Source of the DNA: Terana coerulea
Taxonomy: Eukaryota > Basidiomycota > Agaricomycetes > Polyporales > Phanerochaetaceae
Length of the DNA stretch: 64,000 bases
Reading direction: 5' to 3'
Assembly: GCA_024811115.1 (NCBI GenBank)
Contig: JAKOGH010000691.1
Location: 124,001-188,000, forward strand
Position numbers and translations under genes: made by a program. This document shows, in pieces, positions 3,708-56,850 of this stretch (positions are counted from its first letter, which is position 1; the number at the start of each line of letters is the position of its first letter). Below the pieces are notes generated by a model that had not been told where the DNA came from, ran no database searches, and saw nothing but the letters and a program-made list of their open reading frames with translations.

Positions 3708-5489
3708 ATGATCCCCACTCCAGACGAGAACGTCGGCACGGACGTCGAGAAGAGTTCATCGGATTATGAGCTGCAGGAGTACGTACGTGAAGCAGTTCCC
3801 GAGGCAGACGTAGATGCTGGCGCGGAGGCAAGGTCAGTCGTTGTCTACTGCTCAGATTGCTTAGCGAAAATTTGACCGGGATTTTGAATGGATGTAGACT
3901 CGTACGACGTATTGACATCCGCCTGCTTTCCGCCTCTATGTTCATCTATCTGCTTTTCTACCTCGATCGAGCGAATATCGTAAGTATATATTCAATCGAC
4001 ACTGGCGGGGTCTGACGAGGAGCTTTGGCTGTAGGGCAACGCAAGAATACTGAACAGTGCGACAGGAGACTCTCTTGCACAAACGCTTCGCCTCTCTGAT
4101 CAGCAATACCTGATTGCACTTATGGTCTTTACTGTAGCGAGCATCGTGTTTGAGACTCCTTCCAACTACATGCTCAAGAGGTTTCGACCAAGCCGCTGGT
4201 ATGACTTAGGTTTATTCATTGATTTTCCGCACGGAGCTGACATGAGCTATCTCAGGATCGCGTTGCTGATGCTGGGCTGGGGTGGGACCACAATGATTTT
4301 AAGTGCAGTCCAAAACTTTCCAAGCCTAGCAGCGGTTCGCTTCATTCTTGGTATATTTGAGGCGGGCTTGTTTCCTGGCTTGATGTACTGTTTGACGTTT
4401 TGGTACAAACCGAATGAGCGTGCACTTCGAGCATCGCTGATAATAAGCAGCGCCACGCTTGGTGCGTATCATGCATTACCCTGGTCACAGCCCTGCTGGC
4501 GAACTCATACTCTCATACTGCAGGCGGGGCTTTCGGCGGGGCGATCGCATTTGGTATTGGCCACATGAACGGCGTCCATGACTTTGAGGCCTGGCGTTGG
4601 CTTTTCATTATAGAAGGGGCACCCTCCGTCCTATGCGCAATCCTCGTCTGGCTCTTCTTCCCCGACTTTCCCGAAACCGCAACCTGGCTCTCGCCATCCG
4701 AACGCGCTCTGGCGGTCGGACGCATCGCGGGCGTTGCCTCGCTGGGGCACGCGAAGATCACCTGGGCGGACGCACGAGACACTCTGCTCGACGGGCGGCT
4801 CTACCTTCACCACGCCCTGTGTGTCGCCTTCTCCATCGCGTTCTCGAGCATGGCGTTCTTCACGCCCACCATTGTGTCGGGCCTTGGGTACACAGGGCTG
4901 GCTGCCCAACTGTTCACCGTCCCACCATATGCTATTGCGTTTGTCGTCACGGTTTACGTCGCGTGGCAGTCTGACAAGCGAGAGATGAGGGCATGGGCCT
5001 CCTTTGCATCTTTGGTGATAGCGGGAGTAGCTTTTCTGATACAAGGTCTGCAATCAGCTTTTCATCTACTCACTACGTTGACGTATATTGGGCACGAAGG
5101 TGCTCTTTCACCACATGCCTTCAAGGCTCGGTATGCTCTGCTTTGCATTGCATTACCGTTCACCTTTGCCATGGATGCGCCGCTGCTAAGCTGGCTAATG
5201 GAAAACCTGAGGAATACAGGCGCGACAACGTTGGGCGTACCGCTCAATATCTCCATTGGAAACATCGGACAGCTCATGGGTATGTTTATTCGCCAAGAGA
5301 TGAGTGTATACTGACAGTCTGTTAGGGTTGTATATTTACAAAAGCTCAGAGGCCCCCGGATATCCTACTGGACATTTCGTGAATGCGGGCTTTCTCTTAG
5401 TTGGCGCAGTGGTTGCCCTAGTATTGCGCTCCGTTTATATCCGGCGTAATCGTGCGCTACGTCCTGGAGAGCGGAAGTGGCAGTTGTGA
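3708..5489 (+). CDS. MFS transporter, Dal5/allantoate permease-like
   Basis: Importer of the anion:cation symporter branch of the MFS, probably at the plasma membrane; substrate unknown. Exons 3708-3832, 3898-3979, 4035-4198, 4256-4461, 4524-5279 and 5326-5489 join in frame to 498 residues, a normal length. An acidic N-tail (MIPTPDENVGTDVEKSS) precedes about 12 membrane segments. Family signatures are FETPSNYMLKRFRPSRW, FEAGLFPGLMYCLTFWY and WRWLFIIEGAPS. The start at 3708 was preferred over an in-frame ATG at 3633 because the extra residues lack family character. It is a paralogue of the partial gene at 1-974. Confidence 0.93.
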
Positions 5490-19739: not shown

Positions 19740-21673
19740 TCAGCGGCGGTCGGTCTGGTAACCTCTGGCAATGCCGCTCCGCCCTTGCTCCAGAACGCTC
19801 GGCGCATCTTCACCAATCCTTGCCTCGAGCCCTTGGTACGTACGGCTTTGTAGGAATTGACCTACACATGTAACGGTGGTCAGTATATGGACGGAAATGA
19901 GCAGTAACCACATACTGGCGGCGCTGTCCGACATAACGGTTACGGCGTTCTCTTTGCTCCGCAGTACGACGGCGGACGGGTTCGCCCCATCATCCGCCGT
20001 GGTTGCCGCACTGATTTCGCCGCCGTAGCGCTTTGCTTGTCGGTACTGGCCCGTAACCAGCGAGAACATCGGGCGGTCTGTGACGTCGTCATCGTCGTCT
20101 GACCCGATCGCTTGTGAGGCACTGGTGTCTCCTTCCTGGTTCAGCGCGAGTTTGCTGAAGTCAAGGACATATTGGCCAGTCCAGCTGGGCTCCCGTTGCA
20201 AAGCAACTTCAAGCTCGTACGGTGTAATAATGGGCCGCAGGAATTCCTGGAACAGGTGTGCGTTATGACCGTCGGTGTTGAGAGGGGCGAGAAAAATTAC
20301 ACACCTTCGCCTCTACGAGACTATTCTCCGGACAGGCGACCAAGACAAAGCACTCAATTTCCAAGAAATTGCCAAGCTTCGCGGGGTTGAGCTTCCCAAC
20401 TGTGATCGTATAGCTCTTCTTTTGTGCTCTAGAGAGCATCGTACGAAGCCGAGAGATGAGTGGAAGGTACGAGGCTGACAAGATATTTCAGCGCTACTTG
20501 GCAATCAAGGGTCGTGTGCTTACTTACCGACTCCAAGCGTGCCAACCAATATACCAAAGACATCGGCATCCCGGGCCTTTTGGACAGTCGCATACCGCCG
20601 CATAAGTAGCCTATTTGTCCGTGTAGACTCCAGTCTTGCTGATTGAGTTTGGGGATCGTAGGAGTATACCTTCATAACGCTTAGCGAAGCGAAAACCAGA
20701 TATGTAACTTCATAACTCACACGCGAGATTGAATGAGTAAGAAGAAGGTTCGTTAGACCAAGGCTTTCTCCACCGACGTAGCATATGGTGTCGTACTGCT
20801 CTGCGTTACTGTCATCGCTGATCGCAGTTGACGAGTTTGTTGCTATTGACGATACCGGAGAGCAGAATAACGGCACCACGTGGTAGGCTACTTTGCTGGA
20901 ACTGGGTAGCATGACTTGCAGTTTTTGTGAAGACTGTCTATAGTTTCTTCAGCATTTTAGGAAGCCAAGTTTTCATCAAACTCACCGGCTGCGTGCGCAT
21001 AGCGTACGTCAGTACGTAACAGCACATTGGTCGAAGGAGCCTCTGACGCGCTGAGGGCCTCAGCCAGCTTCATTGCCGCGTCATCGACGTTAATGTCGCT
21101 TTTTCCGAACACGTAGATGACGGGTAATCTTGATGTTCTGATTTAATGCGGAAAGTAAGTGCCCTGTCGCTGCAATCTCCTTCCAAATACGCACTGACTC
21201 ATGCAAGCATGCCCATAGTGAACCATTGCATCGGCCTCTACATGCTGTGCTGCGACTTCGTCTACACAGCAGCTGTGTATCGTAGGGTCAGCTTACTAGT
21301 ACATAGCAGGGTAACAATAGCCTGCCTGCCATATGAGGTATCCGCGAGAACGTAAAACTCAGATCCCTGACTGGTCTTGGCTTTTAATGAACGATATATC
21401 GGTACGGAGGCATGCAGGAGTTCGTCCGGAAACTGCAGTGCAACCTATGAACGATATCGTCATCAGAAATCTGCGAAAACATGTATCGAATACCGCCATA
21501 ATGCTCACGCGCTTATAACCATGCTTCGCGATCTCCTGCACAGTACGATCCACCTCGAAATAATCTTCCAAAACGTTCTGCGAGACGTTTTGAGGAACAT
21601 CGTCCGTCTCGACATGTATTTCTCTGCTAATCACGTCTTCACCCGAAGCAGAAAACGTATTTGTTTCTGTCAT
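19740..21673 (-). CDS. DPH2: Diphthamide biosynthesis protein 2
   Basis: With Dph1, Dph2 forms the radical-type [4Fe-4S] enzyme that transfers the 3-amino-3-carboxypropyl group of SAM to the histidine of elongation factor 2, the first step of diphthamide synthesis in the cytosol. Nine exons (21509-21673, 21326-21444, 21195-21272, 20986-21137, 20721-20914, 20528-20669, 20305-20474, 19916-20246, 19740-19861) join in frame to 490 residues. Signatures: [87 protein letters not shown] and [11 protein letters not shown]. The cysteine of SCCVDEV spans an intron whose donor reads AG|GCAGGC, an apparent GC-AG intron. The start at 21673 gives [19 protein letters not shown]. The gene is intact. Confidence 0.95.
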
Positions 21674-51716: not shown

Positions 51717-51971
51717 TACATTTGGTTGAGTGGATAATATGGGGCTGTTGAAACTGACGTTGGGAAGGTTTGCTATTTAAGATTAGTATGTTGTGTATAT
51801 TTGTCTGGATGCATGCATTTTACCATGTTTGCTGCAGCTCGCTATTTTGTCATACCATCACCATGAAGGAACACGTTACTCTATATGCGCGGACCCCCGC
51901 GCAAAATGACCTTGGCTGCTTGAGAATCATCTCCTCTTGCAATCATTCCAACCGCTAGTGAGGTGTTATTG

Positions 51972-52035
51972 TTCCAATAACCCGGCTAGGTACCACGTGA
52001 TGCTAGCGGCGGCGGCAACTAGCGAGTTATTGGAA
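51972..52035. repeat. Short element with 10-bp terminal inverted repeats
   Basis: TTCCAATAAC (51972-51981) and GTTATTGGAA (52026-52035) are exact inverted repeats around 44 bases containing (GGC)n. A second partial copy of the motif lies just before (GTTATTG). It could be a MITE-like remnant or a hairpin. Confidence 0.5.
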
Positions 52036-52045
52036 GCCCGCGTGC

Positions 52046-52081
52046 CTAATGCGGCATGTGGCGCTAATGCGGCATGTGGCG
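52046..52081. repeat. Tandem 18-bp repeat (two perfect copies)
   Basis: CTAATGCGGCATGTGGCG occurs twice in direct succession (52046-52063 and 52064-52081). The second copy overlaps the left target-site duplication of the SINE-like insertion. Confidence 0.9.
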
Positions 52082-52091
52082 AAGTTCACTT

Positions 52092-52630
52092 TTTTTTTTT
52101 TTTTTGATCTCTCGTTTATACACATTCAAGCTGAGCTTATGCAGTGTCGTACACGTGATCAACTAATTTTAAGGACCAAACACGTACAGAATCAACAGCA
52201 CCCATCCACTTCGCGATCGCTTCGACCCGGGTCATCTGCTCGGACCTTCCTTATTTGACTTCCGCATCACTCCATCGAAAGTGGTCCCTTCCCGCTAATT
52301 GGACTGTGCGAGAGCGCCCGCTACCTGCCGGGACTTTTTGATGCCGATTTGGCTGGTGATGCCCGGGCTTACAGTAAGCCTTATGCTGTGACGGTGACGA
52401 ATCAAGGGGGCTGGGGCCGCGGAAGGACGGCTTGCCGGATCGTTTGGGTTGGGCGGGCCGGTTTAGGAAAGATGGGTTGCTGCATCGGGTATGTTGAAAA
52501 TTAAAGAGTGGAATGGTTAAAGGGGGGCAAAGAAGGTGATGGGGGGCCCCTGTGGGATTTGAACCCACAGCCGTACGAAAGGACGCCTGAGCTATCCACT
52601 AGCTCTGCCCACTGAGCCAGCAGGGCCCCT
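52092..52630 (-). mobile_element. tRNA-derived SINE-like retroelement with 13-bp target-site duplication
   Basis: Read on the minus strand, the element starts at about 52630 with a tRNA-like head (52629-52543), continues through about 430 bp of unique body and ends in a poly(A) tail (plus-strand run of 16 T, 52090-52105). It is flanked by a perfect 13-bp direct repeat GCGAAGTTCACTT at 52079-52091 and 52631-52643. A tRNA-like promoter, a 3' poly(A) tail and a target-site duplication are the defining marks of a SINE mobilised by a partner LINE. No protein is encoded. No second copy was noticed in this window. Length about 540 bp. Confidence 0.8.
52543..52629 (-). tRNA. tRNA-like head of the SINE (RNA polymerase III promoter); anticodon not assigned
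   Basis: The 87-nt segment has an A box (TGGCTCAGTGG), a D arm GCTC...GAGC, a T arm GTGGG-TTCAAAT-CCCAC with a B box (GGTTCAAATCC) and nearly complementary ends (GGGGCCCTG / CAGGGGCCCC). The spacing between acceptor and D arm is irregular and no anticodon stem pairs cleanly, even allowing an intron. It is therefore better read as a tRNA-derived SINE head than as a functional tRNA gene, although an intron-containing tRNA (an Arg-type loop is one possibility) cannot be excluded. Confidence 0.65.
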
Positions 52631-52643
52631 GCGAAGTTCACTT

Positions 52644-54021
52644 GAAGAGCAGGTGTATACAGCAAGTTGTTATTTCTAATAAGCTGTACTAGCTATAATA
52701 TATGCATGCATGCATTACTCATGCTACGACATTATGTATGCTCATGGCTAGCCTAAGCTAGCACTGGCACCAGCAAGTCAGCGGGCACGTCAGTAAGGAT
52801 TTGATGCGAGTGCCATTAATGAACAGATAACTGCGGGGACCCCGGCACAATTCTTGGTACTTTGCAAGGCCTTCATCTCTTCTTGGAGCTGATGGGGTCC
52901 TCGTTCTCACTTGCTCTGCCCCACCATCTCCGTCCGCCCACTTGTTGTCTATTTCTTTCGTGCAAGCATATTCGCTGGGAAGACGCCGCGGGAAAGCCAC
53001 CAGTATGCTATCCTAGAGACATTCTCCATGAGTCAAAGATTACGAGAGACCAATACCGAGCAGGTCAAAGCGCAGGAGAAAGCCAAAGTTAGCTATATGC
53101 ACTTTCTACGAATTTCATCGCGCATATACCCAGCTAAGAAGACGCTAACGCCAATGCTCGGCATTGAAGTCTTCTTATGCTGCATCTACCATGCATGCTG
53201 TAGCACTTTTGTTCCTGTTTGCGTTGCGTCCGTCTCCTCGAGCTGGAGATCGCTCGCTTGTCCGGGATGAAGCTAAGATGCTTCCATTGCGAGTCCTTTA
53301 GGTGAGTTATTCGTTCGAATACATGGAAGAAGGATACTGACTGGTTGTATATAGACCATCGTGTTTTTTTTATGTGGCGAAGATATATTGTATTGCACAT
53401 CACGACGTTCGACGCCTTCCCTTGTCGGACGAAGGCTGTCAGTCGGTGCGCGTATACATGTGTTTGGTCGACTTGCGCTGACTTGAATCCTACAACTAAG
53501 AGGGCCGAGTTATCGCCACCGGGCAAGCTCTGATACTAGGTTGCCCGAATCGTCTCAGAAAGACATGGGTATTCCAAGATACGCTCTAGATACGCCGCGT
53601 AAGTACGCATGTAGCCAAGTTCGTCAGGTTCAGCCACTTACATTGCACCATCTTAACGTGTAGAGCTCGGTGCAGCCTCCTGCTGCGAAGATGTCCCCTC
53701 ATGTCGTCCTCACCTCCGCTGCGTTGGGGGCAGAGGCGGTGTGTCTTAGCGCCCGGCACTAGCTCCGCCCTGAAAAGGAACCCTCGGCCTTTGTTCCGTG
53801 TAGCGCCCCGTTCGCCCCGCGCCGAGTCAACCCCACATAAGGCAGCTGCGCGGTTGCAATTCCGCGAAGGCGCCGTCATAAGAGCCGGAGACGACGCAAG
53901 CCTTATCTCCTTCCCTACCACCCACCACCTCCCTCGTTCACTCGTCGGAGGCTGCTTTCTACTCAACACAGAACACAACCAACACTAGTGGGAAGGCCAC
54001 AACAACTCTACGGAACACAAC
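52644..54021. other. Spacer upstream of the fungalysin gene
   Basis: Open frames on both strands (minus 53586-53978, plus 53701-53988, plus 52911-53270) show no domain and overlap each other. The last 100 bases, rich in CA (ACACAACCAACACTA), look like a fungal 5' leader for the fungalysin. Confidence 0.45.
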
Positions 54022-56850
54022 ATGCGTCGTTTATTCGTCGCTTCCGTGCTCGCCGCCGGCCTCGCTGGCACGCTCGCTGGTAGCTCCGCCGCACACGCTC
54101 CTCTCAACCTGGCGAGGCGTCGTAAGACCATGGGCTTTGGCCCTGACCACCCGCATGCCGTCTTTGAGACGTCCGTCCCCGAGACGTTCCAGGTCTCGAA
54201 TCTCCTGTCGGGCGAGACGGACCCATTCGCGGTGGCGAAGGACTTCGTCAACCGCGCTCTTGTGCCGACTTCGTTTGCCTCGGACGGCGAGGCGGATTTC
54301 TACGTGCGGCCCGACTCATATGTCGACTCCAATACCGGCATCGCGCACGTCTACCTCCGCCAAGTTGTCTATGGGATCGAGGTCGCGGATGGTGATGTCA
54401 ACGTCAACGTAGATGCTCAGACGGGCAAGGTGCTTAGCTACGGTAGCTCAGTGAGTCTATCCCCGGCAATTTCTATAACAAGCCCAGGCTAACGACTGTA
54501 TCAGATACACTCGTCGTCGCTTCCAAGCTTTGCTTCGGCACAGGAGTCATCGACCGTAGACGTTCACGCCCAGCATTGCGCGAACCTTCGTCAAGAGCTC
54601 GAGTCTCGCCGCTCGCAGTTGCAAGCCATCACCGGCCGCCTTCATGGAGGCCAGACCGTCATGTCGGATATGGTCGATCAACTTGCAGCTCTCGGCAAGG
54701 AGACGCTTGGACTTCTGCCGCACCTATACCAGTGGAATTGCCGGGACGTCGAGACACCGAACATGCTCGCCGAGCTGCACCCTTCAACGTTCGCCTCGCT
54801 CTCGAACGATATTCCTGACGTCTCTTCGGCTCTACTTTCGTTCATGATTGCCGCTACTCCCGATCATCTCATGGCGAAGGAGATGACCGAGAAGCCTCAG
54901 TCGTACCTGGACAAGATGCAAGTGCACACCCTTCACCATCTCCATACGGCCGAGCTGGGGCCCACTCCTTCCATGGAGATTGAGGGCGTTCCCGCCACCA
55001 CGGACAAGGTTAAGGCCCGCTTGGCTTGGATTCAAGTACCCAAGGACCGTGAGATGGGTCTCGAGCTCGTTTGGAAGGTATGTCATTCATTCACGCGTGG
55101 TTAGGGGCGTATACTGACAGCCTCATCATTTGTTAGTTCGAGGTTCCCATGGCAGACAACTGGTACGAAGCTGCCATCACCTACGCTGCGCCCCACAAGA
55201 TCGTCAGTGTCGTTGATTGGGCTGCTGACGGCTGGGTCGATGAGCCGACGCCCCTCGACACCGATTCCGCTGAGATGCAAGAGGAGTTCTTGACCGACAT
55301 GCTCAACCGCCTCAACGAGGCACTAGATGTACATGCGGACGTCGCGCCGACCCCTAAGGAGCCTAAGCTCCCGTCGGCTCGTCTTCCCGCCAAGTACACG
55401 GTCTTCAAGTGGGGACTGAACGACCCTTCGGAGGGTGGCAGATCGATCGAGGAAGAGAGTTTCGACGCTCTCGCCAGTCCCGTTGGATGGCATGTCGTTG
55501 AGGTCGCTTCAGACCCTGCATCTGGCGTCAACCTCAATGCCAAGGGCGCATTCCGCAACACCTCTACCACGTGGGGTAACAACGTTTTCGCTCACGAGAA
55601 CTGGGAGGGCGAGAACGCATGGGTCACCAACTACCGTCCTGCTGCGCAGGTCAACACCTCCAGGGCCGACAATGGCGAGGAGAGGCTGATCTTCAACTAC
55701 GAGTACGACCCGCAAGAGACCGACAAGACGGACTCCATGCGGGAAGCGCGGAAGTATATCAACACTACTATCACTCAGCTCTTCTACACCAGCAACCTCG
55801 TCCACGATTTGTTCTACCGCTACGGCTTCGACGAAGTCTCGGGTAACTTCCAACAGCACAACTTCGAACGCGGCGGCAAGGGCAACGACGCCGTCATCGC
55901 CAACGCGCAGGATGGCAGCGGCTTCAACAATGCCAACTTCATGACCCCTCCTGACGGCCAGAACGGCCGCTGCCGCATGTACCTGTGGAACACCGCCAAC
56001 CCGTACCGCGACGGCGACCTCGAAGCCGGTATCGTCATTCATGAACTCGCTCACGGTCTTTCGACCCGTCTGACCGGTGGACCCGCCAATTCGGGCTGCC
56101 TCGGCTGGGGAGAGAGCGGTGGTATGGGCGAAGGTTGGGGCGATTTCCTCGCCACCACGATCCGGGACGTCAAGAACAAGGGTGAGGTCAAGGACTATCC
56201 GATGGGCGCATGGGCTGCGAACAGGGTTGGTGGTATCAGGAACTTCCCCTACAGCTTGGTACGTTTCACCGCTCTGACATCGGTAGCATTTACTGACTAT
56301 TGACCCATAGAACACTACCGTTAACCCATCGACCTACAAGACCCTCGACAAGCCGGGATACTGGGGCGTCCACGCCATCGGTGAAGTCTGGGCCCAGATC
56401 CTCTGGGTCGTCGAACACCACCTAGTCGAGAAGCACGGCTTCAGTAACACGCTCTTCCCTCCCAAGCCCCTCGCGAACGGCACCGTCCCCGTCGGCGACT
56501 TCTACCGCAACAGCACGGACAAGCTCCCGAACGTCGCCAGCGGCAAGCTCATCCCGAAGCACGGCAACACGCTCGCGACGCAGCTCGTCATCACGGGCAT
56601 GAAGCTGCAGCCGTGCCGCCCGTCGTTCTTCGACGCGCGCGACGCGATCATCGAGGCGGACAAGCAGCTGACCGGTGGCGAGAACTTCTGCGAGCTGTGG
56701 CGCGGCTTCGCGGAGCGTGGTCTTGGGCCCGACGCGCGTGTCGACGGCCGCACCCCGTGGGGTGGAGGTATCCGTACCGATGACTTCCAGGTCCCCTCGG
56801 ACTGTCTCGAGGAGGAGCCGACGCCGCAGCCCAAGCCGACAGGGCTCTGA
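54022..56850 (+). CDS. Fungalysin, secreted M36 zinc metalloprotease
   Basis: Extracellular endopeptidase made as a preproprotein. The signal peptide is MRRLFVASVLAAGLAGTLAG; the FTP/propeptide region includes FYVRPDSYVDSNTGIAHVYL and VNVDAQTGKVLSYGSS; the catalytic domain carries GIVIHELAHGLSTRL (HEXXH zinc site) and the downstream glutamate in GGMGEGWGDFLATTI, followed by GVHAIGEVWAQILWVVEHHL and a C-terminal FCELWRGFAERGLGPDAR. Exons 54022-54450, 54505-55077, 55137-56259 and 56311-56850 join in frame; the protein is about 890 residues, somewhat longer than many family members because of an enlarged prosegment (about residues 150-350). The gene is intact. Likely used for protein-nitrogen scavenging. 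Confidence 0.95.

What the first reader, a model, noticed from the sequence alone, without database searches (positions are those of the whole stretch)
52079..52643. Complete tRNA-headed SINE in a basidiomycete-like genome
The sequence directly shows a tRNA-like head with A and B boxes, about 430 bp of noncoding body, a 16-nt poly(A) tail and a perfect 13-bp target-site duplication. This combination identifies a tRNA-derived SINE in family terms. Few SINE families are described in fungi, and the body matches none I recognise. The perfect duplication and uninterrupted tail suggest recent insertion, so a partner LINE may be active.
Basis: partly seen in the sequence, partly recalled or inferred. 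Interest (0 to 1): 0.8.

Follow-up and report, generated by a model that had tools for sequence, protein, structure and literature searches.

The report
Low-copy tRNA-headed SINE in Phanerochaete-like fungus
This is a genuine, recently inserted copy of a small non-coding jumping element (a tRNA-headed SINE) in a wood-rotting fungus; the kind is ordinary, but seldom described in this group of fungi, and its tail matches no helper element found here.

Summary
On the minus strand, 52630-52092 is a 539-nt element: tRNA-like head with A and B boxes, body, 14-16 A, flanked by a perfect 13-bp duplication. The host is Phanerochaete-like (squalene monooxygenase 84-86% to P. carnosa and P. sordida). The assembly holds 19 matching pieces (19 of 19 candidates), about 17 sites. 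Outside the element, this copy's flanks found no other match. Five of 12 near full-length copies have different perfect duplications of 10-15 bp; 132 mismatched flank pairs reach 8 at most, and that pair is one duplicated locus, otherwise 6. Three copies are 97.8-99.2% identical to the consensus; several older ones decay mainly by C-to-T change, strongest at CpG. This is a tRNA-derived SINE family with recent members. The head is closest to tRNA-Trp among 40 of this fungus's tRNA genes, but no program calls it a tRNA at default settings. The weak point is the helper: no search for the tail found a LINE. Two recent poly(A)-tailed LINE families exist; their tails resemble the SINE's only marginally and neither was found intact. 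Real, new member of a known kind.

The parts
52092..52630 (-). SINE, 539 nt including the tail (sense strand is minus)
   Evidence: matches elsewhere begin and end at or within a few bases of these borders; sequence
52631..52643 (.). 5' target-site duplication (AAGTGAACTTCGC on the sense strand)
   Evidence: exact direct repeat
52079..52091 (.). 3' target-site duplication
   Evidence: exact direct repeat
52541..52629 (-). tRNA-like head (acceptor-like stem, extended D-like arm, T-like arm)
   Evidence: fold z -2.67; closest of 40 own tRNAs is tRNA-Trp(CCA), z 7.5; sub-threshold tRNA-clan match
52609..52619 (-). A box TGGCTCAGTGG
   Evidence: sequence; motif in copies
52555..52565 (-). B box GGTTCAAATCC
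   Evidence: sequence; motif in copies
52155..52540 (-). body without known relatives
   Evidence: its longest reading frame, 115 aa, found no protein relative
52106..52154 (-). tail before the poly(A), ending GACACTGCATAAGCTCAGCTTGAATGTGTATAAACGAGAGATC
   Evidence: found with the poly(A) only in copies of this family; fewer C-to-T changes at non-CpG sites in four old copies
52090..52105 (-). poly(A) tail, 14-16 A (two bases shared with the duplication)

Best explanation
It is a copy of a low-copy tRNA-derived SINE family of a Phanerochaete-like polypore. RNA polymerase III transcribes it from the A and B boxes in the head (inferred). The RNA, ending in a genome-encoded poly(A), is taken by the reverse transcriptase and endonuclease of a poly(A)-tailed LINE, which nicks a new site and copies the RNA in by target-primed reverse transcription (inferred from anatomy: duplications of variable length, 10-15 bp in the clear cases; poly(A) directly before the 3' duplication; 5' start nearly the same in the copies that keep it). 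The family has a younger subfamily and an older one (77.7-83.8% to the younger one's consensus), plus one very decayed copy (69.8%). The helper is most likely one of the recent poly(A)-tailed LINE families, but which one is not shown.
For: Multi-copy, 19 of 19 candidates. Exact duplications of 13, 12, 10, 15 and 12 bp in 5 of 12 near full-length copies, each different; control of 132 mismatched flank pairs: 99 none, maximum 8, and that one is the duplicated pair L009/L011, otherwise 6. Only the element, not this copy's flanks, matches elsewhere. At the A-box position 14 of the 15 rows that reach it fit a loose motif; B box 13 of 17 rows. Head aligns best to tRNA-Trp(CCA) of 40 own tRNA genes, z 7.5, 21 of 23 bases across the T arm. 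L001, L002, L003 at 99.1, 99.2 and 97.8% to a consensus that includes them. Poly(A)-tailed LINE copies in the same genome: C717, and the C121/C588 pair, 98.5% alike, the C121 copy with endonuclease, reverse transcriptase and RNase H domains.
Against: No tRNA program calls the head a tRNA at default settings and Rfam stays below its cut-off. No LINE shares the tail by BLAST or pattern. Of the 12 copies, 3 showed no exact duplication of 5 bp or more (L004, L008, L011), and four more only 5-8 bp, which the control does not clearly exceed in every case (L006 5; L018 7; L009 and L012 8). No transcription data. Neither recent LINE was found intact.
Confidence: 0.93

Rival explanations
1. Retropseudogenes of a single-copy host Pol III non-coding RNA gene: a functional RNA gene is the source and the copies are dead passengers of a LINE.
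For: Low copy number (about 17 sites) and clustering of the best copies near one consensus fit few source genes.
Against: Two diverged subfamilies (the group L013, L014, L015, L017 is 76-82% to the query) and the head-body-tail build are the usual SINE picture. A source gene without tail and duplication was not searched for as such.
Confidence: 0.05
2. Non-autonomous LTR element with a tRNA-like promoter (TRIM of the Helenus type, reported from some Agaricomycetes).
For: tRNA-like sequence, and length within the 311-1263 bp reported for Helenus (PMC10886601, passages read).
Against: No direct repeats of LTR kind in 51900-52800; duplications of variable 10-15 bp rather than the 5 bp reported there for solo LTRs; poly(A) end.
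Confidence: 0.01
3. Segmental duplication, or a DNA transposon/MITE.
For: Two pairs of copies (L009/L011, L013/L015) share kilobases of flank, so some copies are duplicates; a few others share parts of flanking repeats.
Against: In the 19 loci compared, the flanks of L001, L002, L007, L008 and L018 share nothing beyond the element at the threshold used; five copies have different duplications; no terminal inverted repeats.
Confidence: 0.01

Closest known systems
Mg-SINE of Magnaporthe (with LINE MGL)
   Same: tRNA-derived fungal SINE of similar length (472 bp, about 100 copies; PMC5063351 introduction), thought to be LINE-mobilised
   Different: Its 3' end is stated to be similar to that of MGL (PMC2104539 passages); here no LINE with the tail was found. 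Sequences were not compared: none in hand.
AfuSINE2 families of Aspergillus fumigatus
   Same: tRNA-related low-copy SINEs with duplications of 4-14 bp (PMC5063351, start of abstract and passages)
   Different: AfuSINE2-1a is stated to end like LINE I-1_AF and in ACT repeats, this one in poly(A); their tRNA sources are given as Ala, Arg, Gly, Met, Thr and Ser, here tRNA-Trp is closest.
Foxy of Fusarium oxysporum; SINE2-1_BG of Blumeria; nrs1 of Nectria
   Same: Described fungal SINEs (PMC5063351 introduction)
   Different: All in ascomycetes; sequences not compared.
SINE rows in repeat annotations of Agaricomycetes
   Same: SINEs counted by pipelines at low copy: 6 and 9 copies in two of five Boletales species (PMC5689174 passages), 29 in Sanghuangporus weigelae (PMC10803629 passages); a class also predicted in the polypore Cryptoporus (PMC11856377 passages)
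   Different: Counts only; no anatomy in the passages seen.
Helenus (tRNA-bearing TRIM) of fungi
   Same: tRNA-like Pol III promoter in a short element; found in some Agaricomycetes
   Different: LTR element; this one has no LTRs and ends in poly(A).

Membership tests
tRNA-derived SINE (SINE2 type) | tRNA-like 5' head with A and B boxes | tested here: met
   A box in 14 of 15 rows that reach it (one search counts 15 of 17 rows, one of them, L013, at another position), B box in 13 of 17; best of 40 own tRNAs is tRNA-Trp(CCA), z 7.5. Against: ARAGORN default finds nothing, Rfam below cut-off, no SINE copy among the 62 genome tRNA matches listed (63 of 1503 candidates scored).
tRNA-derived SINE (SINE2 type) | dispersed copies with individual target-site duplications of variable length | tested here: met
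   Of 12 copies: 5 exact 10-15 bp, 3 at 7-8 bp, 1 at 5, 3 none; control maximum 8 in 132, 6 without the duplicated pair
tRNA-derived SINE (SINE2 type) | A-rich or simple-repeat 3' end next to the duplication | tested here: met
   14-16 A in this copy; A-rich ends in the 12 near full-length copies printed
tRNA-derived SINE (SINE2 type) | non-coding body, no own reverse transcriptase | tested here: met
   longest frame 115 aa; only 3 candidates shared words with it and none scored E<=1
tRNA-derived SINE (SINE2 type) | 3' tail shared with a partner LINE (stringent type) or poly(A)-only dependence (relaxed type) | tested here: inconclusive
   No LINE with the tail; marginal similarity to two LINE tails (41 and 78 of 3000 shuffles); 3' ends of the commonest LINE family not reached
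tRNA-derived SINE (SINE2 type) | transcription by RNA polymerase III | not testable with these tools
   no RNA data
Helenus-type TRIM | long terminal repeats flanking the element | tested here: not met
   only an 18-bp tandem repeat and the 13-bp duplication as direct repeats in 51900-52800
Mg-SINE / Foxy / AfuSINE families | sequence similarity to the named family | not tested
   their sequences were not compared; SINEBase and Repbase are not available here

The most novel reading that the evidence does not exclude
A basidiomycete SINE family with a tail of its own that no LINE found in the assembly carries: either it moves by poly(A) alone on fungal LINEs (an Alu-like arrangement, unlike the shared-tail pairs reported for Mg-SINE/MGL and AfuSINE2-1a/I-1_AF), or it mimics only a short motif next to the poly(A) (roughly AAAC..AGA.C) with which two different LINE families of this genome also end.
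Probability: 0.25. Interest if true: 0.5.

Novelty: new member of a known kind. Interest (0 to 1): 0.33.

Why it matters
The fungal SINEs named in the introduction I read are ascomycete ones, apart from an oomycete set; basidiomycete ones appeared to me only as counts in repeat tables. A clean, young, low-copy family with perfect duplications would give insertion markers for strains, and a system in which to ask whether fungal LINEs recognise a tail or merely poly(A).

Tried and rejected
Rejected: TRIM/Helenus (no LTRs); MITE (no terminal inverted repeats); segmental duplication as the general explanation, though it explains two copy pairs. An empty allele of this insertion is not in the assembly, so polymorphism could not be tested. 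Looking for relatives of the body through stray protein predictions gave nothing. The tail has no fold beyond shuffles (z 0.79; 158 of 200 shuffles at least as stable). LINE-tail sharing: local alignment to the C717 LINE no better than shuffles (1421 of 2000), an end-anchored version weak (8 of 300); a later anchored scoring gave 41 (C717) and 78 (C121/C588) of 3000, with only two non-LINE sites as genomic controls, so I treat it as a hint. A 27-base antisense match of the body to a LINE 3' stretch (L093, 88.9%, E 0.005) was not followed up. Tail conservation, in four old copies only (L008, L009, L012, L018): C-to-T change at non-CpG sites 2 of 64 in the tail against 122 of 793 in positions 1-450 (Fisher p 0.005), but no deficit at CpG (10 of 20 against 85 of 220) or at A/T sites (4 of 112 against 33 of 757); the region was picked after seeing the profile, and when C-to-T changes are set aside the most conserved windows lie in the head, not in the tail. 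My first flank script read many loci in the wrong orientation; searches replaced it. Rfam matches to mascRNA and the CPEB3 ribozyme are below cut-off and taken as chance or tRNA-likeness.

Full report
What is there. The element lies on the minus strand. Read in sense it runs from 52630 to 52092 (539 nt): a head of about 90 nt with A box TGGCTCAGTGG and B box GGTTCAAATCC, a body, a tail ending ...GAATGTGTATAAACGAGAGATC, and 14-16 A, flanked by AAGTGAACTTCGC on both sides.

The head. The 89 nt 52541-52629 fold with a 7-bp acceptor-like stem, an 8-bp D-like stem and a 7-bp T-like stem (-45.6 kcal/mol; z -2.67; 4 of 200 shuffles as stable). It is not a tRNA: no call by ARAGORN at default settings (with introns allowed; a lowered threshold draws an imperfect tRNA-Ala-like cloverleaf and another on the opposite strand), and only a sub-threshold tRNA-clan match in Rfam (26.7 bits against 47). 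The tRNA search of the genome listed 62 matches after scoring 63 of 1503 candidates; no SINE copy is among them. Against 40 tRNA genes cut from this genome (of the 62 listed; 23 kinds by type and anticodon), the best alignment is to tRNA-Trp(CCA), z 7.5, with 21 of 23 identical bases across the T arm; next come genes called tRNA-Met (6.7) and tRNA-Gly (6.1). An origin from tRNA-Trp is likely but not proven.

The family. Searching the 48.4-Mb assembly with the element gave 19 matches (19 of 19 candidates). Joining L012 with L016 (one copy split by an insert) and, less surely, L017 with L019 (same contig, complementary parts, opposite strands) leaves 17 sites. Two pairs (L009/L011, L013/L015) share kilobases of flank and so descend from one insertion each, leaving about 15 insertions. 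A search with the diverged copy L015 gave 11 matches, all at sites already known. With a 2.1-kb query around this copy, the other matches stop at or within a few bases of the borders of the element.

Target-site duplications. Among the 12 near full-length copies (L010, L013, L014, L015, L016, L017 and L019 left out as truncated, rearranged or parts of another), exact duplications were 13, 12, 10, 15 and 12 bp in L001, L002, L003, L005 and L007; 8, 8 and 7 bp in L009, L012 and L018; 5 in L006; none in L004, L008 and L011. In 132 mismatched pairs of flanks 99 had none and the maximum was 8; that pair is L009 with L011, a duplicated locus, and the next value is 6. The five long ones are thus clear, the 5-8 bp ones suggestive. 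By eye, L004 has a 12-bp pair with two mismatches, both transitions.

Age and decay. Identity to the consensus of the 12 subfamily-A rows (which are part of it): L001 99.1%, L002 99.2%, L003 97.8%, down to 84.9% (L011). L018 is at 69.8%; L013, L014, L015 and L017, at 77.7-83.8%, form an older group. In several copies the changes are mainly C-to-T or G-to-A: 25 of 25 in L004, 18 of 23 in L006, 43 of 50 in L008, 37 of 44 in L009, 27 of 28 in L010, 31 of 41 in L012, 114 of 156 in L018. In others they are not: 1 of 12 in L003, 8 of 26 in L005, 10 of 21 in L007, and about half in L011 (45 of 79) and the older group (32 of 80, 35 of 76, 19 of 42, 38 of 65). Pooled over 16 rows the rate is 0.213 at CpG against 0.064-0.090 at other C contexts, and the CpG excess is seen in each of the eight copies looked at singly. 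This looks like cytosine methylation followed by deamination, or a RIP-like process (inference).

Host. The frame at 1516-2691 is a squalene monooxygenase whose best named relatives are from Phanerochaete sordida (86%) and P. carnosa (84%). The species is not identified.

The helper. The tail was sought three ways in the whole assembly: a 139-nt query (14 matches, all at SINE copies); a 19-mer with up to 3 mismatches (18 sites, 12 of them SINE copies; the other 6 equal the 6 found with the reversed control pattern); and GTGTATAAAC followed within 3-14 bases by A6 (30 overlapping hits at 9 places, all SINE copies; control 0). The DNA search skips very common words, so this is absence at that sensitivity. 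Reverse transcriptases are plentiful: the RVT_1 family gave 150 matches after scoring 150 of 249 candidates, LTR and non-LTR not separated; a LINE reverse-transcriptase query gave 130 (104 of 152 candidates scored). Two LINE families are recent and end in poly(A). LINE-A (C717, with a second contig C716 that has the same flank) has one open frame of about 1100 codons with reverse transcriptase and RNase H and ends ...CACCAGATTC(A)15-17. No LINE-like frame continues upstream, and the endonuclease search (25 of 25 candidates, 14 matches) lists none on C717, so this copy is probably 5'-truncated. LINE-B (C121 and C588, 98.5% alike over 4 kb) ends ...AAAGGAGACC(A)13. Its C121 copy has endonuclease, reverse transcriptase and RNase H domains in separate frames; for the C588 copy the reverse transcriptase was found in the frames scanned and the endonuclease. 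Both copies are split over several frames, so neither is shown intact. End-anchored comparison of the SINE tail with LINE-A and LINE-B gave 41 and 78 of 3000 shuffles as good; other scorings for LINE-A gave 8 of 300 anchored and 1421 of 2000 local. I read this as a hint at most.

How it most likely works. Shown: multi-copy, dispersed, individual duplications, poly(A), tRNA-like promoter boxes, no protein relatives. Inferred: Pol III transcription; capture by a poly(A)-tailed LINE; target-primed reverse transcription. Not shown: which LINE, and whether the family is active now.

Comparison. In the introduction of PMC5063351 (read) the fungal SINEs listed are from Magnaporthe, Fusarium, Erysiphe/Blumeria and Nectria, all ascomycetes, plus an oomycete set. 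Mg-SINE is stated to share its 3' end with MGL (PMC2104539 passages) and AfuSINE2-1a with I-1_AF (PMC5063351 passages). In basidiomycetes I saw only counts: two of five Boletales species (PMC5689174 passages), Sanghuangporus weigelae, 29 elements (PMC10803629 passages), and a predicted class in the polypore Cryptoporus (PMC11856377 passages); the Laccaria transposon survey names SINEs only in its introduction in the passages found (PMC3411680), and Sanguinoderma (PMC10989896) does not use the word. The literature searches listed no title, and no start of an abstract, that describes a polypore or other basidiomycete SINE family. That does not prove there is none: Repbase, SINEBase and most subscription journals are not held, and most listed papers were not opened. 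So: a new member of a known kind, with an open question about its tail.

Noticed in passing
window 52046-52081: 18-bp perfect tandem duplication (CTAATGCGGCATGTGGCG twice) directly beside the SINE, its last 3 bases overlapping the target-site duplication.
   Followed up: partly
L012 (G000:C561:446139-447361): A SINE copy is split by a ~670-bp insert with ends TAGTGTTTTGA/TCAAAACACTA; 8 SINE positions (363-370) align on both sides, which suggests a hAT-like non-autonomous DNA element.
   Followed up: partly
L139 (G000:C588) about 4148-4813: The LINE-B copy is split by an insert rich in GGTTCAGTTC with ends TAGTGTTGCC/GGCAACACTA and GATATCCC on both sides, also hAT-like.
   Followed up: no
G000:C252:46988-48549: Two SINE copies (98% and 94% to the query) lie about 490 bp apart in opposite orientation.
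   Followed up: no
L008 (G000:C610:387172-387702): Flanks of this SINE copy form an inverted repeat (CAAATGTTGAC / GTCAACATATTTG) instead of a direct duplication.
   Followed up: no
L010, L014, L017, L019: An unidentified repeat, starting TGTCRCGGAGACGAGCTC in L010 and L017, sits next to or inside several old SINE copies; in L010 131-bp direct repeats (85% alike) directly flank the truncated SINE.
   Followed up: partly
L007 (G000:C278:19771-20296): A LINE reverse-transcriptase match begins at 20294, so this SINE copy sits in or beside a LINE remnant.
   Followed up: no
G000:C316 (134.6 kb): Many tRNA genes of different types on one contig; possibly the mitochondrial genome (inference).
   Followed up: no
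window 55137-56303: Long frame with a HELAHG motif, from recall a fungalysin-type metalloprotease; about 2.5 kb from the SINE.
   Followed up: no
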